Below, in pieces: positions 4,896 to 32,360 of a stretch of 32,360 nucleotides of DNA (position 1 is the stretch's first letter; each line of letters begins with the position of its first letter). Origin of the DNA: an uncultured Eubacteriales bacterium (GTDB taxonomy: Bacteria; Bacillota; Clostridia; Christensenellales; CAG-138); assembly GCA_902761365.1 (NCBI GenBank), contig CACWJZ010000024.1:1-32360 (forward strand), read 5' to 3'. A program made the position numbers and the translations under genes. The notes under the pieces are model-generated. The model did no database searches, was not told the origin of the DNA, and saw only the letters and a list, made by a program, of their open reading frames with translations.

Positions 4896-5210
4896 ATGAA
4901 GAAAGTAGTTGCTCTGTTGCTTGCTGTTCTGATGCTGGCCGGTTTCGCGGCCTGCGGTAAGAAGGAAGCTGCGGCGCCCGCCGCCCCTGCCACCGACACC
5001 AAGAGCGAGACCAAGACTGAGGCCAAGAGCGAGCTGCCCTTTGCCGGCACCACGCTCCGTGTCATCCTGGCCACCCACGACTGGACCAAGGCTGTCGAGA
5101 AGAAGCTGCCCGAGTTCGAGGCTGCCACCGGCATGAAGGTGGAATACGAAGTCTATGTATTCCTCCGTATTCCGGTCATTTTTGCGCAAAGCGCAGCACG
5201 TTCCAGCTGA
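4896..5210 (+). pseudogene. Truncated ABC-transporter solute-binding lipoprotein (N-terminal part only)
   Basis: The first ~87 residues are a typical sugar-binding lipoprotein start: a Lys-rich signal peptide with lipobox AGFAAC (Cys20), a Lys/Ala/Thr/Glu-rich tether, then the first strand and helix of the periplasmic-binding fold (TTLRVILATHDWTKAVEKKL and GMKVEYEVY). Family members run to about 400-550 residues; here sense is lost at about 5155 and the frame stops at 5210 after running antisense into the end of the GH51 gene. An AAGGAG site precedes the ATG, so the start is genuine. The break coincides with a change in base composition. It may be a deletion fusion or an assembly join; no permease genes follow. 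Confidence 0.75.
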
Positions 5211-6687: not shown

Positions 6688-6755
6688 GAATGAACTCCTT
6701 TTCTATGCTTTTCGGTCGAACCGGAGGGTGACGATCTTGACGGGCTTCTTTAGGC

Positions 6756-8048
6756 TCACTCGCTTTTTTCCATCAGCGCGCCCATGGCCTCGTCCTCGGA
6801 GAAGGTCACACCCTCCCAGCGGACGTTTTGGGCGTGTTCCACGGTCACGTGGCGCAGGGGCCGCCGCTGCAGGGTGTCCCCGACCCCGGGGCGGATGTCC
6901 AGGGTGCCCACGGGCCAGTCCGTGGCCCGCCGCAGCCGGAAGGAACAGTCCCGGAAGCGGATGCCGTCGATATTTTGGGCCAGCGCGTCGCCCACGATGA
7001 GGATGCCGCCCTCCGCTTCGGCGGCAATGTTTTCAAAGGAAACGTTGCGGATATGGCCGATCTCTGTGTCGGGGTAGCGCCGGTTGGCGGTGATGGCCAC
7101 GGGCTCCGCCTTGCCCCACCAGCCCTTGGGATCGCACAGGTGGGTGTCGATCTGCAGGTGGTGGAAGCGGGCGTTCTCGATGCTGCCCCTATCCCGAAGC
7201 TGCAGGGAGATGGCCCGGTTGGTCCCCCGGATCACGCAGCGGCCCACGTCGATGTCCGTGAACAGGGCCTCGCTCTCGGAGCCGATCTTGAAGGCGGCGG
7301 ACTTGGAGGTGAGCTCGCAGTCGCTGACGCGGATGTTCCGGCAGGGGCCGTACTGGGCGGCGGCCTGGGTGGTCTTCAGCACGATGCAGTCATCGGCGCT
7401 GGTGATGCGGCAGTGGGTGATGGTGACATCACGGCAGGCGTCGGGGTCGATGCCGTCACAGTTGGCCATGCACAGGTTGTTGCTAATGGTGATGCCGTCG
7501 ATCCGCACGCCCCGGCACCCCACCAGGTGCACGGTCCAAAAGGCGCTGTGCTGCAGGGTGACGCCCCTCATGGCGAACCCCTGCACGTTTTCCGTGTACA
7601 GGAGCGGCATCCGGGGATAGAACAGGCCCTCAATATGGTCCCCCGTGATCTCCCCGTAGAAGATTTTTTCGTTCCCGTCGATGGCTCCGGCGCCTGTGAA
7701 GGAGATGCTCTCAGCGTCCAGGGCGTGGATGAACTTCAGCGGCGGGCCGCCGGTATAGTCGCAGCTGGCGTAGGACGGCACATCCCGCCAGGCGTAGGCG
7801 AAATGCCCCCCCTCCGGCAGAAAGGCGTCGAAGCTGTCCGCGGCCTTCCACAGGCTCCCCTCCTCCAGGCGGACCTCCGTGTGGCTGTAGACGCGCACGT
7901 ACCCGGTGCGATAGGTCCGGCCCCCGGGGAAGAGGACCGTGCTGTCGCCCGCCTCGTCCCGGGCCGCCTCCATGGCCGCCCGGACGGCCGGGGTGTCGTC
8001 CGTGACGCCATCGCCCGCGGCGCCGAAGTCCAGGATGTTGAAGCGCAT
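6756..8048 (-). CDS. GH28 family glycosidase (polygalacturonase/rhamnogalacturonase-like)
   Basis: A 430-residue right-handed beta-helix enzyme, expected to hydrolyse galacturonic-acid linkages in pectin fragments. The N-terminus has the helix-capping pattern FGAAGDGVTDDT at 8-19. Catalytic aspartates are seen as NCDGID (Asp198) and SADD (Asp219, Asp220). The usual third and fourth motifs (a GHG-type histidine and RIK) are altered: the histidine region reads FKIGSES at 253-259 and the last one RDRG at 285-288. That suggests a divergent specificity, such as exo-acting or rhamnogalacturonan-directed. There is no signal peptide. It starts three bases after the GH105 stop, and its GGAGGG site lies in the GH105 3' end, so the two are translationally coupled. 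Confidence 0.88.
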   Translation of the reverse strand: MRFNILDFGAAGDGVTDDTPAVRAAMEAARDEAGDSTVLFPGGRTYRTGYVRVYSHTEVRLEEGSLWKAADSFDAFLPEGGHFAYAWRDVPSYASCDYTGGPPLKFIHALDAESISFTGAGAIDGNEKIFYGEITGDHIEGLFYPRMPLLYTENVQGFAMRGVTLQHSAFWTVHLVGCRGVRIDGITISNNLCMANCDGIDPDACRDVTITHCRITSADDCIVLKTTQAAAQYGPCRNIRVSDCELTSKSAAFKIGSESEALFTDIDVGRCVIRGTNRAISLQLRDRGSIENARFHHLQIDTHLCDPKGWWGKAEPVAITANRRYPDTEIGHIRNVSFENIAAEAEGGILIVGDALAQNIDGIRFRDCSFRLRRATDWPVGTLDIRPGVGDTLQRRPLRHVTVEHAQNVRWEGVTFSEDEAMGALMEKSE

Positions 8049-8051
8049 GGG

Positions 8052-9155
8052 TCAGCCCTCCGGCAAGAGGCGCTTCGCTTCCAGCAGGAACAGGAGCGCC
8101 ATGGCCGTGCCGTAGGGCATGGGCCTGAGCTCGATGTTCTTATAGAAATCCACGGACGCCCGGCCCATGGGCGTGCCGTAGGACACCTGCTGGACGGTGC
8201 CGGTCTCGTCGATCAAATCGAGGATGGGATCGAGGGCTTTGAGGGCCGCGGCCCGATACCCCTCGTCCAGAAGCCCCAGGCGCACCCCCGCCAGGAGCCC
8301 GTAGCCGAAGCCGCAGGTGCAGCTGGCCTCCACGTAGGAATCGGGGTCGTCGATGAGGGTATGCCACATGCCAGTGGGGTCCTGATAGCGGACGAGGGCG
8401 TCCGCCTGGCTTTGGAGCACCTCGCGCAGGTAGCGGGTGAGGTAGGGCTCGCACCCGATCATGCCCACCAGCTCCGGGATGGAGGCCGTGAGCCAGCAGT
8501 TCCCCCGGCCCCAGCGGCCCCGGGCGAAGTTGTGGCGGCCCCGGAAGGTCCAGCCGTGGAAGAAGAGGCCCGTCTCCGTGTCCGCCAGATACCGGATGTG
8601 CAGCAGGAACTGGTACTTGGCTTCATCGATCCAGTCCCCTCTCTTCTCGATGCGGCCCATGTTGGCCAGGAACAGCACCGCCATGAACAGGGTGTCGTCC
8701 CACAGCTCCTGGTCGTTCAAAGTGTCCGAGGTCAGGTGCTGGAACCCGCCGCCCTGGGTCTTGGGGAGCTCGTCCACGAGCCACTGGGCCCAGTCCCGGC
8801 AGACGGCCCCGTAGCGCTCGTGGCCGGTGTGCTCGTAGAGGCAGGAGAGGGTCAGCAGGGGGGCGGTGGTGTTCACGTTCCGGCCGGGCAGGCCCTCGGC
8901 GAGGCGCGCCTCGTAATAGGCCGCCAGCTCGTCCAGCACGGCGGGGTCCCCCGTCTGCCGGTAGTATTGCCAAAAGCCGTAGAGGCCCACGCCCTGGGTC
9001 CACTCCCAGTGCCGGTATTTCAGTATCTCCTGGGGCGGCACGGCCGTGGCCTTCATGCCCTCCAGGAACTTTTCGTCGTCCTCATAGAGGACCTCCTTGA
9101 ATTTGCGGATCAGCAGCTGCAGCTTTTGCTCGATGACATCGGTCCTGTTCCCCAT
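8052..9155 (-). CDS. GH105 unsaturated rhamnogalacturonyl hydrolase
   Basis: This roughly 367-residue protein belongs to the (alpha/alpha)6-barrel family typified by YteR and YesR, which hydrate and release the unsaturated galacturonyl residue left by pectate or rhamnogalacturonan lyases. Supporting features are HWEWTQGVGLYGFWQYY at 49-65, LWDDTLFMAVLFLA at 151-164 with the probable catalytic Asp154, and GRWGRGNCWL later. A longer frame opens 57 bases upstream, but ATG at 9155 is preferred because AGGGGAG lies five bases before it and the extra residues fall in the promoter. It is the first gene of the leftward operon and is cytoplasmic. Confidence 0.9.
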   Translation of the reverse strand: MGNRTDVIEQKLQLLIRKFKEVLYEDDEKFLEGMKATAVPPQEILKYRHWEWTQGVGLYGFWQYYRQTGDPAVLDELAAYYEARLAEGLPGRNVNTTAPLLTLSCLYEHTGHERYGAVCRDWAQWLVDELPKTQGGGFQHLTSDTLNDQELWDDTLFMAVLFLANMGRIEKRGDWIDEAKYQFLLHIRYLADTETGLFFHGWTFRGRHNFARGRWGRGNCWLTASIPELVGMIGCEPYLTRYLREVLQSQADALVRYQDPTGMWHTLIDDPDSYVEASCTCGFGYGLLAGVRLGLLDEGYRAAALKALDPILDLIDETGTVQQVSYGTPMGRASVDFYKNIELRPMPYGTAMALLFLLEAKRLLPEG

Positions 9156-9182
9156 AAGGCTCCCCTTCCGTGGCGTTGCCGT

Positions 9183-9193
9183 GATACTGTATC
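9183..9193. promoter_or_regulatory. Operator-like palindrome between the divergent glycosidase operons
   Basis: GATAC-T-GTATC is a perfect 11-base palindrome. It overlaps the -10 box of the leftward promoter and its presumed start point, a typical repressor position. No local regulator gene is adjacent, so its binding protein is unknown. Confidence 0.35.
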
Positions 9194-9219
9194 TTACCAT
9201 TTCACGCGGCAAAAATCAA
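9191..9219 (-). promoter_or_regulatory. Promoter of the GH105-GH28-GH51 operon
   Basis: Read leftward, TTGATT at 9219-9214 and TAAGAT at 9196-9191 are separated by 17 bases. The -10 lies about 35 bases before the GH105 start. It is back to back with the rightward promoter. Confidence 0.5.
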
Positions 9220-21935: not shown

Positions 21936-23009
21936 ATGGAATTGACCCTTTCGAAAAACATCCGCACCCTGCGCAAAGAGCGAAACCTGACCCAGGAGCA
22001 ATTCGCCGAGGTCATGGGCGTGACCACCGGCGCCGTCCACAAGTGGGAATCGGGGCTGTCGGTGCCCGAGCTGGATTTGATCGTGGAGATGGCGGACTTC
22101 TTCGACACCTCCGTGGACGTCCTGCTGGGCTACAAAATGAAGGACAATCGCCTTTCCGCCACCATCGACCGGCTCAGCCGGTACTGTCGGACCCGGGACC
22201 CGGAGGCCCTGATCGAATGCGAGAAGGCCCTGAAGAAATATCCCCATTCCTTCCAGGTGGTCCACACCTGCGCCGGAATCTACGCCTTTTTCGGCGTGGG
22301 CGGTCAAAGCCGCGAAAAGACCCGGCGGGCCCTGGAGCTCTATGAGCAAGCACTGCTGTTGGTCTCCCAGAACACCGATCCAAAGATCAGTGAGTTCACC
22401 CTCTATGGGGAGATGGCCGGGGCGTATATGGTTCTGGGCGACTTTGAGAAGGGCGTGGAGCTCATGAAGCGTCACAACGCGGGCGGCATGTTCAGCGACA
22501 CCATCGGTGCCATCCTGGCTGCCCATCTGCACCGACCGGAGGAGGCGGAGCCCTATCTCTCCGCGGTGTTGCTTCAGAACGTCAATTCCCTGCTGAATGC
22601 CGTGGCGGGATTCTCCTTTGTCTTCACCGCCCGAGGCGACTGCGCATCGGCCCAAGCCGTGCTCCAATGGGGCATAGACCTGCTCAACAGCCTTCGCCGG
22701 GAACCCGTCACCGATTTTTTGGAAAAGCTCAACGCCCTGCAATACCTGCTGCTGGCTCATGCCCAGATCAAGACCGGGCAGACGGAGCAGGCCTGCGCTT
22801 CCCTGAGGCAGGCCCGGGCGCTGGCCGCCCGCTTCGACGCCGCCCCGGATTACGGCGTGCGAAACCTTCGCTTCGTCACCACCATGGATACCGTGAGCGT
22901 CACCGACATATTCGGCGCCACCGCGGCAGAGAGTCTGGAAAACCTGCTCCGCCTCATCGACGATCCCACCCTGTCCCGCCTTTGGAAGGAGATCAAGGAC
23001 CATGAATAA
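21936..23009 (+). CDS. XRE-family transcriptional regulator with TPR-like C-terminus
   Basis: This 357-residue protein begins with a lambda-repressor-type HTH (residues 6-60: NIRTLRKERNLTQEQFAEVM, then VTTGAVHKWESG and VPELDLIVEMADFF). The remaining 290 residues are all-helical with TPR-like spacing (for example around 95-140, 150-185, 200-235 and 265-305). This design is common in Clostridia regulators that sit next to a transporter they control. AGAGGAG precedes ATG. Its stop overlaps the start of the following MFS exporter by eight bases. Two matching palindromes upstream suggest autoregulation. The ligand is unknown. Confidence 0.88.
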   Translation: MELTLSKNIRTLRKERNLTQEQFAEVMGVTTGAVHKWESGLSVPELDLIVEMADFFDTSVDVLLGYKMKDNRLSATIDRLSRYCRTRDPEALIECEKALKKYPHSFQVVHTCAGIYAFFGVGGQSREKTRRALELYEQALLLVSQNTDPKISEFTLYGEMAGAYMVLGDFEKGVELMKRHNAGGMFSDTIGAILAAHLHRPEEAEPYLSAVLLQNVNSLLNAVAGFSFVFTARGDCASAQAVLQWGIDLLNSLRREPVTDFLEKLNALQYLLLAHAQIKTGQTEQACASLRQARALAARFDAAPDYGVRNLRFVTTMDTVSVTDIFGATAAESLENLLRLIDDPTLSRLWKEIKDHE

Positions 23010-24186
23010 CGATACCCGCAACGTATTTTTCAACCGCAACTACCGGCTGGTGTTCTTCGGCGCCCTGGTGTCGGAGCTGGGGGCCATCCTCTACAGCTTC
23101 GCCGTCAGCTTCTACATCCTGGAGATCACCGACAACAACGCCTTCCTTCAGGGCCTGTATCTGGCCCTCTGCGGCGGGATGCTGCTCCTCGCCACGCCCG
23201 TGGGCGGCGTGCTGGGGGACCGGTTCAGCAAGGCGAAGATCATGTTCCTCTGCGACTACATGAAGGGCGGCATCATCGTCCTCGCCACGGTGCTCATGCT
23301 CCTCTTCCGCAGCAACCAGGCCCACGTCCTGATCCTGTTCGCCGTGGGTATCCTGGGCAACGCCGTCAGCGGCGTCTTCTCCCCCGCCGCCGGCGCTCTG
23401 CTTCCCCACATCGTGGTGGAGGAAAAGCTCCAGCAGGCCAACGCCTACTTCTCCATTAAAAGTTCCCTGCAGAGCATCCTGGGGGTGGTCCTGGCGGGGA
23501 TCCTGTACGCGGCCCTGCCCATCCATCTGCTGTTCATCCTGGTGGGCGTCTGCTATATCCTCTCCGGCGTGTCGGAGATGTTCATCCGCTATGAGCACAA
23601 GCCCTCGGAGGAGAAGCTGACATTGCGCCTGGCCCTTTCCGACATGGGCGACGGGTTTCGGTACCTGAAGACCCAGAAGGCCCTCATGGCCCTGATGGCG
23701 GCCATCCTGTTCATCAATTTCTTCTTCTCCCCCATCGGCGGCAACTTCCTGCCCTATTTCGTGAAGACGGACGTGGCCGCCGCCCCCGGCTACCTTTTCG
23801 ACCGGGTTTTGACGCCGGAGCTCTGGTCCTCTGTGTGCAGCGTGATGATCGGCATCAGCTCCCTGCTCGCCGCAGCCATCCTCAGCGCCCGGCCCCAGGA
23901 GGACAAGTGCGGCCGCAAGGTGGCGGTGCGCCTGGGATACATCGCGATGGTGATGATCCTCCTGACGGTGGGTTATTGGCTGCTGGTGGATCGGGGCCGG
24001 GACAAGCTCAGCAAGGTCTCCAGCATCGTCAGCATCGTTTCTCAGGGCCTGACCCCCATCTCCTCGGTCCTGGCCGGGTCGGTCCTCCAGTATCTGGGCA
24101 GCACGCCGCTGCTGCTGGTCTGCTCCCTGGGCTTCACCGCCACGGCCCTGTTCCTCCTGTTCAACAAGAAGGTCCAGGACATCTGA
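23002..24186 (+). CDS. MFS efflux transporter (macrolide/drug exporter-like)
   Basis: A 394-residue membrane protein with about 11-12 helices, of the branch that includes MefA-like exporters: an N-terminal FFNRNYRLVFFGALVSELG, GGVLGDRFSKAKIMFLCDYMKG after helix 2, and a PAAGALLPHIVVEEKLQQANA loop after helix 4. These loops match drug-exporting MFS-3 proteins rather than sugar importers. The ATG overlaps the regulator stop (ATGAATAA), so both are on one transcript. A strong terminator follows. Substrate specificity is unknown; efflux of an antibiotic or a metabolite sensed by the regulator is an inference. Confidence 0.85.
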   Translation: MNNDTRNVFFNRNYRLVFFGALVSELGAILYSFAVSFYILEITDNNAFLQGLYLALCGGMLLLATPVGGVLGDRFSKAKIMFLCDYMKGGIIVLATVLMLLFRSNQAHVLILFAVGILGNAVSGVFSPAAGALLPHIVVEEKLQQANAYFSIKSSLQSILGVVLAGILYAALPIHLLFILVGVCYILSGVSEMFIRYEHKPSEEKLTLRLALSDMGDGFRYLKTQKALMALMAAILFINFFFSPIGGNFLPYFVKTDVAAAPGYLFDRVLTPELWSSVCSVMIGISSLLAAAILSARPQEDKCGRKVAVRLGYIAMVMILLTVGYWLLVDRGRDKLSKVSSIVSIVSQGLTPISSVLAGSVLQYLGSTPLLLVCSLGFTATALFLLFNKKVQDI

Positions 24187-24240: not shown

Positions 24241-24960
24241 TTATTTGTAGCTGTGCACCCCCGGCAGCAGGGCGTTCACGCCGATGTAGGTGAAGATCAC
24301 GCACACGAAGCCCACCACGGCGAAGATGGCGGCGGACTTGCCCTGCCAGCCCCGGCGGATGCGCAGATGGAGATACGTGGCGTAGACCAGCCAGGTCACC
24401 AGCGACCAGGTCTCCTTGGGGTCCCAGGACCAGTAGCTGCCCCAGGCCCGCTCGGCCCAGATGGCGCCGGTGCTGGCCTTCATCCTGTCCCGCAGCAGGA
24501 AGATGATCCCCAGCACGCAGCTGACGCCGAAAGCGCCGTAGGCGATGATGGCCGTGGACACGTGGAACCCCAGCCAGTTGGATTGGAGCGCGGGCATCAG
24601 GGCGCGGATCTCCTTGGACTGCAGGGCCGCGTAGCCGATGATGATGAAGGTGATCGGCGCGGCGAAGGCGCCCAGGAGCGTGAACCGGAACTTCAGAATG
24701 AACAGCAGGCTCACCAGGCACAGCCCCCAGGCGAAGGCGGAGGCGAACTCGTACTGGTTGGTGAGCGGCAGCCGCCCGGCCGCCACGCCCCGAAGGACGA
24801 TGGCCGTCGTGTGCAGGAAAAGGCCCGCCGTCTGCACGCCCATGGCCCCCTTGCCGAGGCCCTCCTTCTTGACGGCCACGAACAGGAAGTAGAGGATCAT
24901 GGCCCCGAAGTAGAGGCCCAGGACCCCGTAAAAGAGGATCGTTTCCAATGGCAGCGTCAT
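24241..24960 (-). CDS. ccsA: Cytochrome c maturation protein CcsA (ResC family)
   Basis: A 239-residue integral membrane protein with about eight helices and the tryptophan-rich heme-handling WWD motif WGSYWSWDPKETW at 173-185. Histidines at 50, 133, 198 and 236 are candidates for heme ligands. With ResB/CcsB it forms the system II synthase that moves heme to the outer face and attaches it to CxxCH motifs of apocytochromes. The start ATG overlaps the resB stop (ATGA), and its AAAGGAG site lies within resB. It is the last gene of the nrfA region, so its natural client is NrfA. Confidence 0.92.
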   Translation of the reverse strand: MTLPLETILFYGVLGLYFGAMILYFLFVAVKKEGLGKGAMGVQTAGLFLHTTAIVLRGVAAGRLPLTNQYEFASAFAWGLCLVSLLFILKFRFTLLGAFAAPITFIIIGYAALQSKEIRALMPALQSNWLGFHVSTAIIAYGAFGVSCVLGIIFLLRDRMKASTGAIWAERAWGSYWSWDPKETWSLVTWLVYATYLHLRIRRGWQGKSAAIFAVVGFVCVIFTYIGVNALLPGVHSYK

Positions 24961-26207
24961 GCCTGGTCTCCTTTCTCTTGGTGCGCTTCGTCCCGGCCCG
25001 CGGCCCGGGCGAATTCTTCCCGGAACAGCGCGCCGCCCTTGCGGCTTTGGCCGTACACCGTCCAGGTCCCGTCCGCCTGCGCCGCCGCCCAGACTTTCGC
25101 GGGCAGCAGGTAGAACGCGAGGATCAGCCCCAGCAGGGTGACGAGGCCGCCGAGGAGCGCCAGCGTCTGGAACCGGTCCGTCTTCACCTGCAGCAGGGTG
25201 TAACTCTGGGGTTCCGAGAAGGTGATGCTGTAATCGTTGACGGTGATGGGCCCGTCCGATTCCTGCCAGTAGTTCATGCCCACCATGCTGTCCCCGTAGG
25301 TGATGGAATAGAGGTAGGCGGGGTTGTTCATGCGGCCGGACAGGGTCATGGGCCCTATGCCGGGCTGCAGATAGAAATCGGGATAAAAGGCGTTGAGATA
25401 GACGCGGAGGCCCGGGGCGTCGGCGATCTCGATACCCTCCCCGGCGCAGACGATTTGGGTCTGCAGCGGCGTCCCGTGCCGGGCGGGATGGTTCACGGAC
25501 ACGGTGTCGCTCTGGCTGTCGGGGACCGCGGTGGAGCCCTGGGGCGCGCGGAAGATCGTCACGTCCGCCACGTACTGCGCCACGGTGTCGTCGTCCCTGA
25601 GCCGGACTTCAAAATCGTCGATGGTCAGGTAGTAGCCCGTTTCGCCGATGGGCTTGGTGTCGCCGGGGACGCCATAAACCGTGTACTCCCGATGGGTGAG
25701 CTGGCCCAGGGTGAAGCCCAGGATCAGCAGCAGGATGCCCAGGTGGCACACCCAGGGTCCCCAGAGGCCCAGCCGGTTCCTGCCGGAGAACAGGACCTTC
25801 TTGCCCTCGATCTCACAGACCTTGGGCTTGGGGAGCCGGAGCCTTTCAAACAGGGGCAGGGGGTCGGCCACGTTCTCGCATGCGGCGTCCGCAGGGCCGG
25901 ACAGGGCGGCGGACGGGTCCGCCTCCCGCTTCGTACGGGCGATCAGGGGCTTTAGGCGGGTCAGGTTGCAGAGGAGCAGATTCCCGCAGAGGAAGGCGGT
26001 CAGGGTCAGCAGCCACCAGCTGTGGAAGGCGTCGTCCAGCCGCAGGCCCACGATCAGCCGGGCCGCGCCCTCGGAATACGCCTCGGCGTACCAGGCGTAG
26101 CTTTGGCCCTGGGTCACGAAGCTGGCCGCCACGCAGGCTGCCGCCAGCACCGTCAGCAGCGTGATGGCGAAGCCCATGGAGCCAAGGAATTTCAGGAGTT
26201 TTTTCAT
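24957..26207 (-). CDS. resB: Cytochrome c biogenesis protein ResB/CcsB
   Basis: A 416-residue membrane protein of the ResB family, partner of CcsA in heme ligation. Membrane helices are seen near 13-30, 64-84, in the stretch WVCHLGILLLILGFTLGQL and near the C-terminus (LGGLVTLLGLILAFYLLP), with a large extracytoplasmic domain between the third and last. The C-terminus is short and basic. The chosen ATG has no recognisable ribosome binding site; the upstream AT-rich hairpin element may have replaced it. It follows nrfA at 196 bases and overlaps ccsA by four. Confidence 0.9.
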   Translation of the reverse strand: MKKLLKFLGSMGFAITLLTVLAAACVAASFVTQGQSYAWYAEAYSEGAARLIVGLRLDDAFHSWWLLTLTAFLCGNLLLCNLTRLKPLIARTKREADPSAALSGPADAACENVADPLPLFERLRLPKPKVCEIEGKKVLFSGRNRLGLWGPWVCHLGILLLILGFTLGQLTHREYTVYGVPGDTKPIGETGYYLTIDDFEVRLRDDDTVAQYVADVTIFRAPQGSTAVPDSQSDTVSVNHPARHGTPLQTQIVCAGEGIEIADAPGLRVYLNAFYPDFYLQPGIGPMTLSGRMNNPAYLYSITYGDSMVGMNYWQESDGPITVNDYSITFSEPQSYTLLQVKTDRFQTLALLGGLVTLLGLILAFYLLPAKVWAAAQADGTWTVYGQSRKGGALFREEFARAAGRDEAHQEKGDQA

Positions 26208-26236
26208 AGGAATTTATGGTATTTATTGAAAGCCTC

Positions 26237-26369
26237 GTTCTTTTTCTTGAAAGAAAAAGAACCAAAAAGAACTTTGAGAAGGGGGCAATTCATGTGCAAA
26301 GACCATGATCCCTTCTTAAGTTTCTCTTTATGCGCCGCTTTTTCTCTTTGTATAAAGAGAAAAAGCGGC
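26237..26369. repeat. Composite hairpin element between nrfA and resB (MITE-like)
   Basis: Three inverted repeats lie side by side in AT-rich DNA unlike its GC-rich surroundings. They are a 12-bp stem at 26237-26262 (GTTCTTTTTCTT / AAGAAAAAGAAC), a 13-base imperfect stem joining 26270-26283 to 26310-26322, and a perfect 16-bp stem at 26334-26369 (GCCGCTTTTTCTCTTT / AAAGAGAAAAAGCGGC). No ORF is inside. It may be a miniature mobile or REP-type element. Confidence 0.55.
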
Positions 26370-26394
26370 AAAGAAAAACTTCTCCGCCGCTTTT
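26354..26394 (-). terminator. Terminator-like hairpin after nrfA
   Basis: Read leftward, AAAAGCGGC (26394-26386) can pair with GCCGCTTTT (26369-26361), followed by TCTCTTT. The second arm is also the first arm of the 16-bp hairpin at 26334-26369, so the two structures exclude each other, as in attenuators. Confidence 0.45.
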
Positions 26395-26403
26395 GTTCAA
26401 CCC

Positions 26404-27702
26404 TTATTTCCCTAACAGCGCCATGCCATCGCTGATCCGCTGTTCGGCGGTGTCCAGGCACCTAAACGCCAGCTCGGAGTTGTGGGCGCCCTCGGCGTTC
26501 TCCACGTAGCAGAAGTCGAAGAACCACTGGGCCTCCCGGTACAGCTTCTGCACCGCGGAGAGCTCCTCCTCGCCCATCTGCCCTGCCTGCACGGCCGCAG
26601 CCAGCGCGTCCTTGAAGGCGGAGAGCTTGTTCCCCACCTCGGTCTCCCGGGTCGTGACCCGCTCCTGGAGCCGATGGACCAGGTTCACCATATCCGTATC
26701 TCCATGGCAGGTGGCGCAGGACTTCAGCAGCGACTCGTTCTCCAAGGGGCTCACCAGCAGGTGGCTGTGGTAGACGGTCCCGTCCTCGGTCTCTTCGAGG
26801 GGCATATGGCAGTCGGCGCAGTTCAGCAGCTTCGCATGCTTGCCGGCGAGGAAGGTCTCAAACTCCGGATGCTGGGCCTTGAGGAGCTTGGCGCCGGTGC
26901 TCTCCTGGGTCCAGTCGGAGAAGCCCACGGTCCCATCGGGCAGGACCATGTTGTCATAGAACGCCAGGATCGCTTCCGGCGTCATGGCCTCCACGCTGTC
27001 GTAGGGCATCATGGTCTCCTTGTCCGTGGGCGTGAAGTAGTACTCGATATGGCACTGGCCGCAGGACAGGGTGGCCGCATCAATCTTCTCCGCGTTGGCA
27101 CCCAGGGCCTTGGTCACATAGCTGTGAGTCACCACCAGCTTGCCCTTTTCACCCGCCTCGTTGCCGTGGCAGGTGTAGCAGCTTACGTTCTCCTCCATCA
27201 TGGCCATGGCCTCGTCGAAGGGGATCTTGTAGGCGCTGACGCCCTGGTCGTTGACCAGCTTGGCGAAGTTGGGGGTCTTGCAGGTGAGGCAGTTGGCCAG
27301 GGGATGAGGCCGGGCCGTATGGGCCACGTCCTCCAGCGTGTACTCATGCCCCCGGGCGGAGCCGTACTCCTTGGCGAAGCCGAAGCCCTCGTAGATGTTC
27401 TTCAGGTACGGGTCCTGATTCAGGTAGTCCACAATGTAGCTGTTCTTCCTGTTGTCGCCCATGGTAGCCGCGATCTCGGGGTAGGCGGCGGCCCAGTCGG
27501 CGGCGTTGATGGTGCCGTCCTTGCTGGAGGCCTTGGGCGCGTCCGCGGTCTTGTAGGTCACGTCAGCGCGTACGAGGGGCGTGGTCCGCTCCACACGGAA
27601 CAGCAGGTTCTTGCCGCCCACGACGCCGCCCAGCAGCAGCACCGCCAGGATGACGATGACCAGGCCGATGAGCAGTTTTGCCGCTTGATTTCTCTTTTCC
27701 AT
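26404..27702 (-). CDS. nrfA: Ammonia-forming cytochrome c nitrite reductase
   Basis: A 432-residue pentaheme enzyme that reduces nitrite to ammonium with six electrons, on the outer face of the membrane. The N-terminal helix (9-30) lacks an obvious cleavage site and may serve as an anchor. Hemes bind at CLTCK (138-142, active-site heme with Lys ligand), CYTCH (175), CGQCH (214), CADCH (295) and CATCH (329). Active-site residues are Arg131 (TARPHP), Tyr221 (CHIEYYF) and His278 (KAQHPE), the last motif retaining the Lys and Gln of calcium-binding forms. AAGGAGG precedes ATG, 13 bases after rnfB. No nrfH lies beside it, so Rnf is a candidate electron donor. Confidence 0.95.
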   Translation of the reverse strand: MEKRNQAAKLLIGLVIVILAVLLLGGVVGGKNLLFRVERTTPLVRADVTYKTADAPKASSKDGTINAADWAAAYPEIAATMGDNRKNSYIVDYLNQDPYLKNIYEGFGFAKEYGSARGHEYTLEDVAHTARPHPLANCLTCKTPNFAKLVNDQGVSAYKIPFDEAMAMMEENVSCYTCHGNEAGEKGKLVVTHSYVTKALGANAEKIDAATLSCGQCHIEYYFTPTDKETMMPYDSVEAMTPEAILAFYDNMVLPDGTVGFSDWTQESTGAKLLKAQHPEFETFLAGKHAKLLNCADCHMPLEETEDGTVYHSHLLVSPLENESLLKSCATCHGDTDMVNLVHRLQERVTTRETEVGNKLSAFKDALAAAVQAGQMGEEELSAVQKLYREAQWFFDFCYVENAEGAHNSELAFRCLDTAEQRISDGMALLGK

Positions 27703-27715
27703 GCTATGCCCTCCT

Positions 27716-28525
27716 TCATTCCGCCTGCGCGGGTGCGTTCAGGGGCCGGGTGATGACCTTGCTGGGGCATTTCTCGGCGCACTTGCCGCACTGGGTACAG
27801 TTCTCGTAGGTGACCTTGGCCAGGCTCCCCTCCATGTGGATGGCGTCGAATGCGCACTGCTTCACGCAGAGGCTGCAGCCGATGCAGCCGGCGGAGCAGA
27901 CCTTCTTCACCAGGGGCCCCTTGTCCTTGTTCCGGCACTGGACCACCACATGCTTCGATTCGGGAATGAGCTCGATGAGCCCCTTGGGGCAGGCCTTCAC
28001 GCACAGGCCGCAGGCCACGCACAGCCGGGGGTTCACCTGAGCCACGCCGTCCACCATGCGGATGGCGTGCTGGGGGCACACGTTCACGCAGGACCCCAGG
28101 CCCATGCACCCGTAGTCGCATTCGCCCACGTTGACGCCGCTGAGGGCCGCAGCCCTGCAGTCGGTGACGCCCACGTAGTTGCCCTGCTTCTTGGTGTTCT
28201 CGCAGGTGCCCTTGCAGCGGACGAAGGCCACCTGGCGCTCCAGCACCGCCGCGTCCTTGCCCATGATGCCGCCGATCTTGGCAGCGCAGGGGGCGCCGCC
28301 CACGGGGCAGCCGTTCACGGGCGCTTCCCCGGAGACGATGGCCGCCGCCATGGCGTCACAGCCCGCGTAGCCGCAGGCGCCGCAGTTGTTGCCGGGCAGA
28401 CACTCCCGCACGGCCGCCTCCCGCTCGTCCACGGGCACATAGAACTTCTTGCCCGCGAAGACCAGCCCGGCGCCTACGATGACGCCGATGACCACGATCA
28501 CGATCGTCGTTATGAGAATAACCAT
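27716..28525 (-). CDS. rnfB: Rnf complex subunit B (multi-cluster ferredoxin)
   Basis: This 269-residue subunit accepts electrons from reduced ferredoxin at the cytoplasmic face. It has one N-terminal membrane helix (3-25), the Fe-S domain with CLPGNNCGACGYAGC (42-56) and CP at 73, and four further cysteine motifs: CDYGCMGLGSCVNVCP (136-151), CVACGLCVKACP (169-180), CIGCSLCVKQC (214-224) and CTQCGKCAEKCP (243-254). This matches the multi-cluster Clostridia type. GGGAGG precedes ATG. It sits between rnfA (15 bases) and nrfA (13 bases), which makes nrfA part of the same transcript in all likelihood. Confidence 0.95.
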   Translation of the reverse strand: MVILITTIVIVVIGVIVGAGLVFAGKKFYVPVDEREAAVRECLPGNNCGACGYAGCDAMAAAIVSGEAPVNGCPVGGAPCAAKIGGIMGKDAAVLERQVAFVRCKGTCENTKKQGNYVGVTDCRAAALSGVNVGECDYGCMGLGSCVNVCPQHAIRMVDGVAQVNPRLCVACGLCVKACPKGLIELIPESKHVVVQCRNKDKGPLVKKVCSAGCIGCSLCVKQCAFDAIHMEGSLAKVTYENCTQCGKCAEKCPSKVITRPLNAPAQAE

Positions 28526-28540
28526 ACTATCCTACCTCCC

Positions 28541-29122
28541 TCAGAACGACAGCTTGGAGAAGCCGATGAACGCGATGGACATGAGCGCCGCCGAGATGAG
28601 CACGATGGGCGCGCCGCGAAGGGGCGCGGGCAGGTCCTCCTCCCGGATGCGGGTCCGGATGCCGGCGAGGAGCACGATGGCCAGGGTGTAGCCCACGGCG
28701 GAGCTGAAGCCGGACACCACGCTCTCGATGAAGTTGTAGCCGCTCATGGCGTTGAGCTGAGCGATGCCCAGCACGGCGCAGTTAGTGGTGATGAGGGGCA
28801 GGTAGATGCCCAGGGCCTTGTAGATGGCCGGGGAGGTCTTCTTCAGGAACATCTCCACGATCTGCACCAGCGCCGCGATGACCAGGATGAAGACGATGGT
28901 CTGCATGAACTCCAGGCCGAAGGGCTTGAGCACGTAGTCGTTGAGCAGGCTCGCCACGGCGGAGGCGATGGTCATGACGAAGATGACCGCCACGCCCAGG
29001 CTCGCCGAGGCCTTCATCTGCTTGGAGACGCCCAGGAAGGAACAGACGCCCCAGAACCGGCTCAGCAGCACGTTGTTGATGAGGGCGCCGCTGACGATGA
29101 TCAGGATCAGACTGTTGTTCAT
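28541..29122 (-). CDS. rnfA: Rnf complex subunit A
   Basis: A 193-residue membrane subunit with six helices. Cys27 (WGVCSFLG) and Cys115 (ITTNCAVLG) are the two cysteines that, with two from RnfE, hold the intramembrane [2Fe-2S] cluster known in Rnf and Na+-NQR. Length is typical. It overlaps the rnfE stop by four bases (ATGA), so the two partner subunits are made in step. Confidence 0.96.
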   Translation of the reverse strand: MNNSLILIIVSGALINNVLLSRFWGVCSFLGVSKQMKASASLGVAVIFVMTIASAVASLLNDYVLKPFGLEFMQTIVFILVIAALVQIVEMFLKKTSPAIYKALGIYLPLITTNCAVLGIAQLNAMSGYNFIESVVSGFSSAVGYTLAIVLLAGIRTRIREEDLPAPLRGAPIVLISAALMSIAFIGFSKLSF

Positions 29123-29802
29123 TTGGCTTCCTCCTTCCGCTCGTCACAGGACATGGTGCAGGCGGCGCAGTTGCCGTTGCAGCCGTCGTTCTCCACCAGC
29201 TGCCGCTGCCGGGTCTTGATGCCGATGGCGTTCATGATGATGATGAACAGGGCGATGACCAGGTACGCCCCCGGCGGCAGGCTGAAGATGGCCGCGGGGG
29301 ACACGCTCTCAGGCAGGACCTGCATGCCGAACAGGGTGCCCTTGCCCAGGATCTCCCGGAGGGAGCCCGCCAGGGTCAGGGCGATGGTGAACCCCAGGCC
29401 CATGCCCACGCCGTCCATCATGGCGAGGCCGGGTTCGTGCTTGTTGGCGTAGGCCTCGGCCCGGCCCAGGATGATGCAGTTCACCACGATCAGGGGGATG
29501 AACTGGCCCAGGGCCTTATCCACCGTGGGCAGATACGCCTTGATGATGAGCTGGGTCACGGTCACCAGGGAGGCCACGATCACGATGTAGGCCGGGAGCC
29601 GGACCTCGTTGGGGATCCGCTTGCGCAGGACCGAGATGATCAGATTGGAGAACACCAGCACCGCCGTGGTGGACAGGCCCATGCTCACGCCGTTGATGGC
29701 GGCGGTGGACACGGCCAGGGTGGGGCACATGCCCAGCATGAGCACCATGGTGGGGTTCTCCTTGATAAGGCCGTTATACAGCCGTTCCATGTATTTATTC
29801 AT
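29119..29802 (-). CDS. rnfE: Rnf complex subunit E with Cys-rich tail
   Basis: A 227-residue membrane subunit, paralogue and partner of RnfA. Cluster cysteines are Cys26 (LMLGMCPTLA) and Cys109 (VVNCIILG). After the last helix a hydrophilic tail carries CNGNCAACTMSC at 208-219, four cysteines spaced like a metal or Fe-S site on the cytoplasmic side. ATG at 29802 is chosen because AAGGAG lies 13-18 bases upstream; the longer frame to 29880 would be read from within a folded element. The structured spacer at 29826-29920 separates it from rnfD-rnfG. Confidence 0.94.
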   Translation of the reverse strand: MNKYMERLYNGLIKENPTMVLMLGMCPTLAVSTAAINGVSMGLSTTAVLVFSNLIISVLRKRIPNEVRLPAYIVIVASLVTVTQLIIKAYLPTVDKALGQFIPLIVVNCIILGRAEAYANKHEPGLAMMDGVGMGLGFTIALTLAGSLREILGKGTLFGMQVLPESVSPAAIFSLPPGAYLVIALFIIIMNAIGIKTRQRQLVENDGCNGNCAACTMSCDERKEEAK

Positions 29803-29825
29803 ATATAAATCCCACTCCTTTAATA

Positions 29826-29887
29826 GTAGTTTTGCCGGTTTCGCTTGCGAAATTGCTGCGTCGGTCCGCAGCAAAGGCACAAACTAC
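29826..29887 (-). ncRNA. Three-way-junction structured element upstream of rnfE
   Basis: An outer stem (29826-29836 with 29876-29887; GTAGTTT / AAACTAC plus GCC / GGC) encloses two hairpins placed end to end: TTTCGC-TT-GCGAAA at 29839-29852 and TTGCTGCG / CGCAGCAA at 29853-29874. In the rnf transcript it ends five bases before the rnfE ribosome binding site. It could be a cis-regulatory RNA, a processing site or a small repeat element. No known riboswitch is recognised. Confidence 0.4.
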
Positions 29888-29889
29888 GG

Positions 29890-29920
29890 GTAGTGTGAAA
29901 AACTCGTTTTTTCACACTAC
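29890..29920 (-). repeat. Perfect hairpin over the rnfD-rnfG stop codon
   Basis: A 13-bp perfect stem (GTAGTGTGAAAAA / TTTTTCACACTAC) with a five-base loop. The rnfD-rnfG stop codon (TAG) lies inside its first arm. It is not followed by a T-run, so partial termination or mRNA processing between rnfDG and rnfE is more likely than a full stop. Confidence 0.6.
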
Positions 29921-31503
29921 TCTCCTCCCTGCATCACGCTGTGGAAGAAGTCGAGACCCGCGTTCACCGCGTTGACCACGGCCCCGGAGGTAGTGGAGGC
30001 GCCGGAGATGGCGTCGATCACGTTGTCCCCGGTGACGCCGCCCTTGTTGTGGACGAACTGATCGACCTGCCGGTCAGCGAACTGGTCCTTGAAGGCGGGC
30101 TCGTCGGCCAGCATGCCCATGCCGGGGGTCTCGGTGAGCTCGGTGAAGGCGATGCCCAGGACCTTGCCGTTGGCGTCCAGGCCCATGGACAGGGTCACGT
30201 TCCCGTCGTAGCCGTCGCCGCTGGTGACGCTCAGGGCGTAGCCCACGGTGTTGCCCGCGGCATCCTTGGCCACGAAGGCCTCGTTCACGTAGGCCTTGCC
30301 GAACTTGGTGCCGTAGACCTGACCGTCCAGGGCCGCGATGGCCGCGTCGGCCGCCTCGTCATGCTCGAAGGTGACCGCCTCTGGCACCACCGCCACATAG
30401 GCAGCTGCCTTGGCCTCCTCCTCCTGAGCCTCGATGGTGGGCTTCGTCATGGAGTAGACCCCGGAGAGGGCCACGCCGGAGAACAGGGCGATGAGGACCA
30501 GCGCCACCACGGGCTTGGGGATCCGCTGCAGCAGGGGCGGCAGCTTCACGCCGCTGGCGGCCCGGATGGCCCGCTTGCGATAAGCGTAGGGCTTGGGGAT
30601 CACGTACATGTCGATGAGGGGCGTGAACAGGTTCCCGATGATGACGGAGTAGCTGAAGTAGTCCACCTTGCCCAGGATCCGGAACAGGGCCCCCAGCACG
30701 CCGATGAGGCAGCCGTAGACCGCCTGACCCAGCCGGCTCACGGGGGAGGTGGTGTAGTCCGTGGCCATGAAGAAGGCGCCCATGACCACGCCGCCGCCGC
30801 AGAGCTGCGCGGCCAGGAAGGCGGGGTCGAAGCCCCGGCCGCCGAAGAGACCCATGACCAGGGTAAAGGCGCCCAGCACGGAGAAGCAGATCTCCCCGTG
30901 GATGATGTCAAGGCCCCACAGGATGAGGCCGCCGATGAGCAGCGCCACGATGGAGCTGCCGATGACGCCGGTGGAGGTGCCCAGGAACATGCTGGTCACG
31001 TCCAGGCTCGCCGGGACGCCCTTGCTCATGGCGTCGGAGAGGACGGCCAGGGGCGTCGCCGAGCTGACGCCGTCCAGCGCCGGGAACTGGGTCATCACCT
31101 TGCCGAAGCTCAGTAGCAGGAAGCACCGGCCCGCCAGCGCCGGGTTGATGAAGTTCTTGCCGAGACCGCCGAAGCAGCACTTGGCCACCAAAATGGCGAA
31201 CACGGAGCCCAGAATGGGGTAGATCACGGGCGTGGAGGGGGACAGGGACAGGGCGAGGAGCATGCCCGTCACCGCCGCGCTGCCGTCCGTGATGGACAGG
31301 GGCCGCTTGATGAGGAGGCAGAACAGGGCCTCCGTGCCCACCGCCGCCAGGATGGAGGCCAGGATCACGAACAGGGCGTTCCACCCGTACACGATCACGC
31401 CCACGATGGCCGCCGGCACCAGGCTCAGCAGCACCGTGTGCATGATGAAGGAGGTGGTCCACCGATCCCGTACATGGGGGCTTGCGGATAGATTCAGTGT
31501 CAT
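29917..31503 (-). CDS. rnfDG: Fused Rnf subunits D and G
   Basis: This 528-residue protein joins two normally separate subunits in one frame. Residues 1-315 are RnfD: about nine helices and the FMN-attachment motif SSATPL (Thr150). After a short linker (316-328) residues 329-528 are RnfG: a membrane helix at 330-350 with GVYSMTKP, then the extracytoplasmic FMN-binding domain with GMGM and the attachment motif DAISGASTTSGAV at 497-509, where Ser503 stands at the usual Thr position. There is no internal ribosome binding site or stop. GGGAGG precedes ATG, three bases after rnfC. In the complex these two flavins pass electrons across the membrane. Confidence 0.93.
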   Translation of the reverse strand: MTLNLSASPHVRDRWTTSFIMHTVLLSLVPAAIVGVIVYGWNALFVILASILAAVGTEALFCLLIKRPLSITDGSAAVTGMLLALSLSPSTPVIYPILGSVFAILVAKCCFGGLGKNFINPALAGRCFLLLSFGKVMTQFPALDGVSSATPLAVLSDAMSKGVPASLDVTSMFLGTSTGVIGSSIVALLIGGLILWGLDIIHGEICFSVLGAFTLVMGLFGGRGFDPAFLAAQLCGGGVVMGAFFMATDYTTSPVSRLGQAVYGCLIGVLGALFRILGKVDYFSYSVIIGNLFTPLIDMYVIPKPYAYRKRAIRAASGVKLPPLLQRIPKPVVALVLIALFSGVALSGVYSMTKPTIEAQEEEAKAAAYVAVVPEAVTFEHDEAADAAIAALDGQVYGTKFGKAYVNEAFVAKDAAGNTVGYALSVTSGDGYDGNVTLSMGLDANGKVLGIAFTELTETPGMGMLADEPAFKDQFADRQVDQFVHNKGGVTGDNVIDAISGASTTSGAVVNAVNAGLDFFHSVMQGGE

Positions 31504-31506
31504 GGC

Positions 31507-32360
31507 TTATTTCCCTCCCCCCTGGGCAGCCTGGGCCGCCCGTTTTTTGACCAGGATCTCCGCCTTGGTCTGCTTGAAGTTCTGCGTCAAGGGGCGCTTG
31601 GCCGGGCAGATGTAGGTGCAGGAGCCGCAGAAGATGCAGTCGAGGCCGTAGAGCTTCTTCTCATACCGCTCCATGTCCCCGGCGATGATGGCGTCGGCCA
31701 TCATCTGGGGCATGAGGCCGTTGGGGCACACGGTGGTGCAGCGGCCGCAGTGGAGGCAGGTGGTGAGCTTCAGCTCCGCCTCTTCCACCTCATCCGCCAA
31801 AAGCACCGTGATGGCGTTGGTGGTCTTGGTGATGGGCACGTCCAGGGTGCTGACGGCCAGGCCCATCATGGGGCCGCCCGAGATGACCTTCTTGGGCTCC
31901 GCGCCCTCCTGGATGCCGCCGGCGGCTTCGATCATCTCCGCGAAGCTGGTGCCGTCCCGGGCGATGAAGTTGGAGGGGGTCTTGACGCCCTCGCCGGTGA
32001 CGGTGATCACGTGGCGGAACAGGGGCTCGTTGTAGAGGACCGCCCGGCCCACGGCGTAGATGGTGCCCACGTTGTCCACGATGCAGCCCACGTCCGCGGG
32101 GAGCTTGGAGGTGGGATAATCGATGCCGGCGATGACGCTGATGAGGCTGCGCTCGCCGCCCTGGGGGTACTTGGTGCGGAGCTTTTGAACCCGCATCCGG
32201 GGGTGCCCCTTCACGGCCATCTCCATGGCGGCGATGGCCTCGGGCTTGTTGGCCTCGATGCCGATGACGCCCTCGGCGTTGGGGAAGAGCCGGAGCATGA
32301 TCTCCATGCCCTCCACGATCTCTTTGCCGTAGCCCCGCATGAGCTGGTCGTTGCAGGTGA
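31507..32360 (-). CDS. rnfC: Rnf complex subunit C, C-terminal part (5' end beyond window)
   Basis: The last ~284 codons of RnfC, the peripheral subunit that binds NADH/FMN and Fe-S clusters. The frame stays open to the right edge (TCNDQLMRGYGKE), so the start is outside. Visible parts are the SLBB-like domain and GEGVKTPSNF segment, then two [4Fe-4S] motifs, CLHCGRCTTVCP and CIFCGSCTYICP. A Lys/Ala/Gly-rich tail ends it. The rnfD-rnfG start follows after three bases, and rnfC is the expected first gene of the operon. Confidence 0.95.
   Translation of the reverse strand, partial: TCNDQLMRGYGKEIVEGMEIMLRLFPNAEGVIGIEANKPEAIAAMEMAVKGHPRMRVQKLRTKYPQGGERSLISVIAGIDYPTSKLPADVGCIVDNVGTIYAVGRAVLYNEPLFRHVITVTGEGVKTPSNFIARDGTSFAEMIEAAGGIQEGAEPKKVISGGPMMGLAVSTLDVPITKTTNAITVLLADEVEEAELKLTTCLHCGRCTTVCPNGLMPQMMADAIIAGDMERYEKKLYGLDCIFCGSCTYICPAKRPLTQNFKQTKAEILVKKRAAQAAQGGGK

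What the first reader, a model, noticed from the sequence alone, without database searches (positions are those of the whole stretch)
24241..32360. Rnf operon running directly into nrfA and cytochrome c maturation genes, with no nrfH
The order rnfC-rnfDG-rnfE-rnfA-rnfB-nrfA-resB-ccsA is seen on one strand with gaps of 13-15 bases around rnfB. NrfA normally receives electrons from the NrfH quinol dehydrogenase or NrfBCD. Here the only electron-transfer partner encoded nearby is Rnf, which moves electrons from ferredoxin toward NAD+ and has an outer-face flavin in RnfG. Rnf linked to a multiheme cytochrome is known from methanogens (MmcA) and some sulfate reducers. A direct Rnf-to-NrfA route would couple ferredoxin or NADH oxidation to nitrite ammonification and ion pumping without quinones. 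The electron route is inference.
Basis: partly seen in the sequence, partly recalled or inferred. Interest (0 to 1): 0.78.

Follow-up and report, generated by a model that had tools for sequence, protein, structure and literature searches.

The report
Rnf pump wired to nitrite reductase
Gut bacteria, many from ruminants, carry a conserved gene cassette in which an altered Rnf electron pump sits next to a nitrite-to-ammonium reductase, which suggests that they respire nitrite without the quinones this enzyme normally needs.

Summary
On the minus strand rnfC (cut by the window end)-rnfDG fusion-rnfE-rnfA-rnfB-nrfA-resB-ccsB lie in order, 13 nt between rnfB and nrfA. It is not a one-contig accident: of 79 NrfA-related loci 74 have rnfB upstream of nrfA, 68 within 213 nt; of 38 nrfA-bearing genomes in the window's family 36 show adjacency (the two sets overlap). 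Only the eight-gene cassette is conserved, not its flanks. The linked Rnf is a distinct clade with RnfD fused to RnfG; the 40 unlinked Rnf compared are unfused. NrfH and NrfD profiles hit 0 of 103 family genomes, and none of the 38 carriers has a UbiA-type prenyltransferase over the cut-off. The NrfH genome search did miss one NrfH fragment elsewhere. Most likely this Rnf variant passes electrons from ferredoxin, perhaps also NADH, through the outer RnfG flavin to membrane-anchored NrfA. The electron step is inferred; no biochemistry or structure was available. I found no description in the papers searched.

The parts
31507..32358 (-). rnfC, cut at the 5' end by the window edge: Complex1_51K, SLBB and 4Fe-4S domains
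   Evidence: Pfam; TIGR01945 over its cut-off
29917..31503 (-). rnfDG fusion, 528 aa: RnfD membrane domain plus RnfG outer FMN domain; flavinylation-type motifs DGVSSAT (D part) and DAISGAS (G part)
   Evidence: TIGR01946 and TIGR01947 both over cut-off in one frame; motifs
29119..29880 (-). rnfE, with a Cys-rich C-terminal tail
   Evidence: TIGR01948 over cut-off; tail
28541..29122 (-). rnfA
   Evidence: TIGR01943 over cut-off
27716..28525 (-). rnfB, ferredoxin-side Fe-S protein
   Evidence: TIGR01944 over cut-off; Fer4 and FeS domains
26404..27702 (-). nrfA, 432 aa pentaheme cytochrome c nitrite reductase with an N-terminal hydrophobic anchor-like stretch
   Evidence: PF02335 7.4e-76; one CXXCK and four CXXCH; best PDB match 1gu6 at 4.4e-46
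26361..26394 (-). terminator-like hairpin (15 pairs) just after nrfA
   Evidence: sequence
24957..26207 (-). resB, cytochrome c maturation
   Evidence: PF05140 3.1e-41
24241..24960 (-). ccsB (also called ccsA), cytochrome c maturation
   Evidence: TIGR03144 over cut-off

Best explanation
The cassette encodes a quinone-free nitrite-respiring unit. Electrons from reduced ferredoxin enter at RnfB, cross the membrane through the RnfA/E iron-sulfur centre (the ion-pumping step in Acetobacterium woodii Rnf) and reach the FMN of the RnfG domain on the outer face. There they are handed to the hemes of NrfA, which is held to the membrane by its own N-terminal stretch, and nitrite is reduced to ammonium. 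NADH could also feed in through RnfC and RnfD, probably without pumping. ResB/CcsB attach heme to NrfA and ApbE attaches FMN to RnfDG. Shown: genes, order, conservation, clade, fusion, motifs, and no detected NrfH, NrfD or over-cut-off UbiA in the family carriers. Inferred: physical contact, direction and donor of electrons, ion pumping, nitrite as substrate in vivo.
For: Adjacency in 74 of 79 loci and 36 of 38 family carriers, sets overlapping. Linked Rnf is one side of one branch, 100% SH-aLRT, 65 linked against 40 unlinked rows. RnfDG fusion in 70 of 72 linked ORFs (68 without four repeats; the two short ones, L059 and L068, begin at a contig edge) and 0 of 40 unlinked. NrfA and Rnf distances co-vary, Mantel r 0.62 on 61 loci, 0 of 2000 permutations as high. 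PF03264 0 of 103 and 0 of 50; PF03916 0 of 103; UbiA over cut-off in 0 of 38 family carriers and 2 of 50. ApbE twice in the own genome. No frame other than NrfA with two or more CXXCH in the window plus 79 loci, 1.28 Mb. Heme motifs and the residues recalled as catalytic (R117, Y221, H278, K142) invariant in 35 NrfA. Two loci place an FMN_bind/FAD_binding_2 protein between rnfB and nrfA. U-shaped path past RnfG FMN: PMC11889175 (passages).
Against: G002 has a related NrfA (59% identity) but unfused, unlinked Rnf, and L100 and L108 have no rnf in the 2.6 and 10 kb upstream of nrfA. Other Clostridia have nrfA-resB-ccsA with neither NrfH nor Rnf adjacent. Four of the six long rnfB-nrfA inserts hold no reductase-like frame. 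The NrfH genome search missed a fragment in G466. Rnf may simply be co-regulated. The genomes are largely incomplete MAGs (own genome 69%).
Confidence: 0.7

Rival explanations
1. Co-regulation without direct wiring: Rnf and NrfA are expressed together because both dispose of reductant, while NrfA is reduced by an unidentified donor (small cytochrome, flavoprotein, exogenous hydroquinone or humic mediator).
For: A few NrfA of this clade stand without adjacent Rnf (G002, L100, L108). Stand-alone nrfA-resB-ccsA exists in other Clostridia. Mediators in gut contents are recalled, not tested.
Against: Linkage is near universal in the sample and goes with a fused-RnfDG clade; no other multiheme frame in the window or the 79 loci; over-cut-off UbiA lacking in 38 of 38 family carriers and 48 of 50.
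Confidence: 0.16
2. Shared role: this Rnf still works mainly as ferredoxin:NAD+ oxidoreductase, and NrfA only bleeds off electrons as nitrite or NO detoxification, adding little energy. The wiring is as in the best explanation; the purpose differs.
For: Of the 36 family carriers with an RnfD match, 34 have one RnfD locus and two (G057, G058) have matches on two contigs, so this Rnf probably keeps the general Rnf job. At least 61 of 70 linked RnfC rows keep the glycine-rich motif. Of 38 family carriers two (G002, G039) match the Molybdopterin family, so most would take nitrite from outside.
Against: A D.R pair in the RnfC segment after NGAECE, present in 36 of 37 readable unlinked rows, is in 0 of 58 readable linked rows, 49 of which have N.Q; this hints that RnfC changed, but its meaning is unknown.
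Confidence: 0.25
3. A classical NrfH or other quinol route exists but was missed because of incomplete MAGs or search sensitivity.
For: The genome search missed an NrfH fragment in G466. Own genome is 69% complete. Two of 50 genomes have UbiA over the cut-off.
Against: PF03264 0 of 103, including 0 of 50 genomes at least 90% complete, and 0 of 50; UbiA over the cut-off in 0 of 38 family carriers while 14 of 14 controls ring. PF02621 (58 of 103, 41 over its cut-off, best 47 bits) includes one carrier over the cut-off, G018, whose protein fits an ABC substrate-binding family better.
Confidence: 0.07

Closest known systems
Methanosarcina Rnf with MmcA (PMC11024163, passages)
   Same: Rnf operon carries a multiheme cytochrome c that takes electrons from the complex outside the membrane.
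   Different: MmcA passes electrons to methanophenazine or extracellular acceptors and is related to octaheme tetrathionate reductases; here the cytochrome is itself a nitrite reductase, and RnfD and RnfG are fused. That paper says MmcA is absent in Bacteria that use Rnf between ferredoxin and NAD.
NrfHA (Pelobacter pPRO1) and NrfABCD (E. coli)
   Same: Same catalytic subunit family and heme set.
   Different: No NrfH, NrfB, NrfC or NrfD gene in the cassette; no quinone prenyltransferase detected in the own genome.
Desulfovibrionaceae Rnf with CbcC-like decaheme cytochrome (PMC11434368, passages)
   Same: rnf operon with an adjacent multiheme cytochrome.
   Different: The passages describe a CbcC homologue, not NrfA (nrfA has 0 occurrences in that text), and many of those operons lack rnfB.
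Multi-flavinylated or heme-bearing RnfG (PMC8238504, passages)
   Same: Same idea of a second exit from RnfG to an outer acceptor.
   Different: Extra domains sit on RnfG itself; nrfA has 0 occurrences in that main text.

Membership tests
Rnf complex | All six subunits A, B, C, D, E, G encoded together | tested here: met
   rnfC is cut by the window end but longer in related loci
Rnf complex | RnfD and RnfG as separate proteins | tested here: not met
   one 528-aa frame in the window; 70 of 72 linked ORFs are 514-539 aa, two are cut by a contig edge
Rnf complex | Flavinylation motif Dxx[ST]GA[ST] in RnfG | tested here: met
   DAISGAS in the window; a looser pattern fits 67 of 72 linked and 21 of 27 unlinked RnfG rows; motif as in PMC12052999 (passages)
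Rnf complex | Membrane [2Fe-2S] cysteines in RnfA and RnfE | tested here: met
   Cys in GVCSFLG and TTNCAVLG (RnfA), GMCPTLAV and VVNCIILG (RnfE) of the window; cluster in PMC11889175 (passages). Read by motif, not aligned to A. woodii
Rnf complex | Ferredoxin:NAD+ oxidoreductase and ion pumping | not testable with these tools
   needs biochemistry
NrfA (PF02335) | Family profile over cut-off | tested here: met
   256 bits against 24.1
NrfA (PF02335) | CXXCK active-site heme plus four CXXCH | tested here: met
   window; 92 of 95 NrfA rows, near and far, have exactly 4+1; two have 3+1 and one 8+2
NrfA (PF02335) | NCBIfam model cut-offs for named NrfA types | tested here: not met
   214 bits against 595; 178 against 692.5
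NrfHA / NrfABCD | Partner NrfH or NrfBCD | tested here: not met
   sensitivity caveat; NrfB and NrfC were not searched genome-wide
NrfHA / NrfABCD | Quinone pool | tested here: not met
   UbiA no match in the own genome; PF02621 in the own genome 21.9 bits, under its cut-off; other menaquinone genes not searched
MmcA-type Rnf | Multiheme cytochrome as a subunit of Rnf | not testable with these tools
   physical association not tested

The most novel reading that the evidence does not exclude
A dedicated bacterial Rnf variant (fused RnfDG) forms a supercomplex with NrfA and runs quinone-free, ion-pumping nitrite ammonification straight from ferredoxin. The whole cassette moves between Clostridia, Erysipelotrichia and Spirochaetes, largely in ruminant guts, where it competes with methanogenesis for reductant. 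Two related loci suggest the same Rnf also drives fumarate-reductase-like flavoenzymes.
Probability: 0.5. Interest if true: 0.85.

Novelty: new variant of a known kind. Interest (0 to 1): 0.74.

Why it matters
The characterised NrfA systems known to me draw on quinol. A direct Rnf-NrfA wire would be a further way to feed this enzyme, would give fermenting bacteria without quinones a real respiration, and would make Rnf a branch point rather than a closed ferredoxin-to-NAD loop. In the rumen, nitrite reduction is an electron sink that competes with methane formation and removes a compound toxic to the animal (recalled); these uncultured lineages could matter for nitrate-feeding strategies. The model is testable by swapping electron donors and ionophores.

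Tried and rejected
Considered and rejected: chance adjacency (74 of 79 loci); a larger conserved island (flanks not conserved by mechanical ORF clustering); a futalosine menaquinone pathway suggested by PF02621 matches in 58 of 103 genomes, 41 over that cut-off. The matches score 47 bits or less; the one nrfA carrier over the cut-off (G018) gave a protein that NCBIfam matches to an aliphatic sulfonate ABC binding protein (below that model's cut-off) and Pfam to NMT1 as well as PF02621; the other matches were not identified. Dead ends: the plasmid collection holds only distant NrfA (18 records, all under 60% identity) and RnfDG relatives (69 records, all under 60%), so these served as outgroups. 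A class-wide sample gave PF02335 in 5 of 391 genomes, own included, too few for a class-level linkage test. Limits: the 79 loci are what remains of the best 80 of 159 relatives found by NrfA similarity, so 'linked Rnf is one clade' is partly by selection; of the 40 unlinked rows 35 came from the window's family and five from the plasmid collection. Whether fused Rnf exists without nrfA outside that family was not tested. The 79 loci and the 38 family carriers overlap: 16 of the 30 family loci held have an identical 800-nt stretch in one of the 79. Five loci judged near-copies (L032, L034, L037, L088, L073) were left out of trees and. Taxon labels are record titles of MAGs and were not checked with marker genes; L059 is titled Erysipelothrix rhusiopathiae, which I did not verify.
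Full report
What is there. The minus strand of 24241-32358 carries rnfC (5' end cut by the window edge), rnfDG, rnfE, rnfA, rnfB, nrfA, resB and ccsB in that order. Pfam supports every assignment; NCBIfam gives hits for all but ResB, and NrfA stays under the cut-offs of the two NrfA models it matches. RnfD and RnfG are one 528-aa protein. rnfB and nrfA are 13 nt apart, with AGGAGG between the stop of the first and the ATG of the second. Between nrfA and resB lie 196 nt with a 15-pair terminator-like hairpin; that scan found 5 terminator-like sites against 4.8 expected, and no promoter-like site. In related loci such hairpins occur in 23 of 70 nrfA-resB gaps and 1 of 63 rnfB-nrfA gaps, against 2 of 350 shuffled nrfA-resB gaps; the rnfB-nrfA gaps are shorter, which favours fewer hits there.

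NrfA itself. It has one CXXCK and four CXXCH. In 35 aligned relatives (window included) the residues recalled as catalytic (R117, Y221, H278 and the CXXCK lysine K142, window numbering) are invariant. It matches solved NrfA structures, best 1gu6 at 4.4e-46. The N terminus carries a hydrophobic stretch that looks like a membrane anchor (sequence). By pattern, two extra cysteines (C398, C415) are present in 85 of 85 NrfA rows of this clade, four of them repeats, and in 0 of 10 others.

Conservation. A scan of genome contigs with NrfA gave 159 relatives; the best 80 gave 79 loci. The titles are mostly of MAGs labelled Clostridia, Lachnospiraceae, Oscillospiraceae, Solobacterium or Spirochaetes; many name goat, sheep, deer, cattle or buffalo gut organs, and the RUG series is recalled as rumen. 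In 74 of 79, rnfB lies upstream of nrfA; in 68 the gap between tblastn ends is at most 213 nt, in 6 it exceeds 600 nt. Of the five without rnfB, three start within about 100 nt of nrfA at a contig edge, and two (L100, L108) lack rnf in 2.6 and 10 kb upstream. In 66 of the 67 loci where both RnfD and RnfG were found they are one open frame; L065 has one stop. Flanking genes are not conserved: the commonest flanking ORF cluster reaches 12 loci in mixed orientations. In the window's own family 38 of 103 genomes have PF02335. Comparing places by eye, 34 have rnfD on the same contig within about 4 kb, two more (G056, G066) have rnfA and rnfB adjacent, one is cut by a contig edge (G042) and one (G002) is unlinked. 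The two samples overlap (16 of 30 family loci).

A distinct Rnf. In the RnfD+RnfA+RnfE tree, 65 linked and 40 unlinked rows (101 different of 105) fall on two sides of one branch, support 100, stem 1.38 changes per column; the method was the quick one, without bootstrap. Linked RnfD ORFs are 514-539 aa in 70 of 72 rows (68 without four repeats), the other two cut by a contig edge; unlinked ones are 301-352 aa in 40 of 40. Rows labelled Spirochaetota sit among Bacillota rows in both trees, which suggests transfer of the cassette. NrfA and Rnf tree distances correlate (r 0.62, 61 loci, 0 of 2000 permutations as high); shared descent contributes. Linked loci were chosen by NrfA similarity.

Cofactor sites. 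Cysteines for the RnfA/E cluster are present in the window, as are DGVSSAT in RnfD and DAISGAS in RnfG. Over the linked rows a loose RnfG pattern fits 67 of 72 and a loose RnfD pattern 58 of 72, against 21 of 27 and 26 of 40 unlinked (the RnfD pattern was sought in a fixed stretch and can miss). ApbE accepts Ser or Thr at the last place but prefers Thr (PMC12052999, passages); the window and many relatives have Ser there. The own genome has two ApbE matches. At least 61 of 70 linked RnfC rows keep the glycine-rich motif, but a D.R pair found in 36 of 37 readable unlinked rows is in 0 of 58 readable linked rows, 49 of which have N.Q (12 of 70 linked and 3 of 40 unlinked rows unreadable). Its meaning is unknown.

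No usual partner. PF03264 (NrfH/NapC) hits 0 of 103 family genomes and 0 of 50 genomes behind the loci, at least three of which are family genomes too. The same search also gave 0 of 4 for class genomes with other NrfA, yet one of them (G466) holds an NrfH fragment upstream of nrfA that a direct scan finds (PF03264 6.6e-7, TIGR03153 4.1e-26, the latter under its cut-off). The genome search therefore misses some NrfH. A separate scan of the window and the 79 loci (1.28 Mb) found no frame other than NrfA with two or more CXXCH. NrfD PF03916: 0 of 103. UbiA PF01040: 9 of 103, 6 over the cut-off, none of these six an nrfA carrier; one carrier (G057) has a 19.5-bit match with stops; 14 of 14 controls ring. 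Among the 50, two (behind L062 and L096) are over the cut-off, against 3 of 4 class genomes with other NrfA. PF02621 (MqnA/D) matches 58 of 103, 41 over the cut-off, best 47 bits; among nrfA carriers only G018 is over the cut-off, and its protein fits an ABC substrate-binding family. Two of 38 family carriers (G002, G039) match the Molybdopterin family, so nitrite would mostly come from neighbours.

Mechanism. In A. woodii Rnf electrons run from RnfB through the membrane [2Fe-2S] of RnfA/E to RnfG FMN on the outer face, then to RnfD and RnfC; pumping is assigned to RnfA/E and not to RnfD (PMC11889175, passages). If NrfA takes electrons at RnfG FMN, ferredoxin oxidation keeps the pumping half and gains a far more positive acceptor (nitrite/ammonium about +0.34 V, recalled). 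NADH could enter in reverse through RnfC and RnfD without pumping. This is inference. In support, L055 and L107 carry a protein with FMN_bind and FAD_binding_2 domains between rnfB and nrfA, as if this Rnf serves several outer-face reductases; the other four long inserts (L071, L076, L083, L095) hold no such frame by eye.

Literature. Ten searches of the PMC library were made; nine bear on this question, and no listing or passage that I saw describes an rnf-nrfA cassette. Most listed papers were not opened. Opened by passages: PMC3534657 (Melioribacter) has separate rnf and nrfHA loci, PMC5317091 (Caldithrix) has Rnf but no NrfAH, PMC4595116 (Thermoanaerobacter) speaks of nrfA only for other organisms; rumen papers PMC6479175, PMC12918512 and PMC10811737 count nrfA and mention or count rnf without linking them. 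Closest ideas are MmcA-Rnf (PMC11024163), CbcC-Rnf (PMC11434368) and a second electron exit proposed for multi-flavinylated RnfG (PMC8238504). Gut NrfA without membrane partners was noted as an open question in PMC4257093 (passages). Supplements were not read; most subscription papers and preprints are not in this library.

Verdict. Observation confirmed, interpretation supported at the genomic level, electron transfer step unproven. New variant of a known kind.

Noticed in passing
L055:7892-9961, L107:7122-9293: Between rnfB and nrfA sits a protein with FMN_bind and FAD_binding_2 domains; by eye L055 also has tatA/tatC-like frames there.
   Followed up: partly
L063:10001-12433: Two nrfA copies in tandem in the same cassette.
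   Followed up: no
window 26404-27702 (C398, C415 of NrfA): Extra cysteine pair near the C terminus in 85 of 85 NrfA rows of this clade and 0 of 10 others; possible disulfide.
   Followed up: partly
window 29119-29880: RnfE has a Cys-rich C-terminal tail: 72 of 75 linked rows have at least four Cys in the last 32 residues, against 7 of 40 unlinked (two unlinked tails are read past a stop).
   Followed up: partly
rnfC of linked loci (segment after NGAECE): Conserved D.R pair of other RnfC is N.Q in 49 of 58 readable linked rows and D.R in none.
   Followed up: partly
L163-L166 (G234, G313 two copies, G421): nrfA-resB-ccsA in other Clostridia with neither NrfH nor Rnf adjacent; the N termini look lipoprotein-like by eye, though my motif scan flagged none.
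   Followed up: no
G002 (L157, L158): The one family genome whose nrfA is clearly not next to Rnf; its Rnf is of the unfused kind.
   Followed up: partly
L076, L083, L095 between rnfB and nrfA: Short frames that look like toxin-antitoxin or other small mobile genes by eye.
   Followed up: no
window 5176-9212: Plant cell-wall polysaccharide genes on the minus strand: arabinofuranosidase C-terminal domain, GH28 and GH88.
   Followed up: no
window 21936-24186: HTH/TPR regulator and MFS transporter on the plus strand, convergent with ccsB.
   Followed up: no
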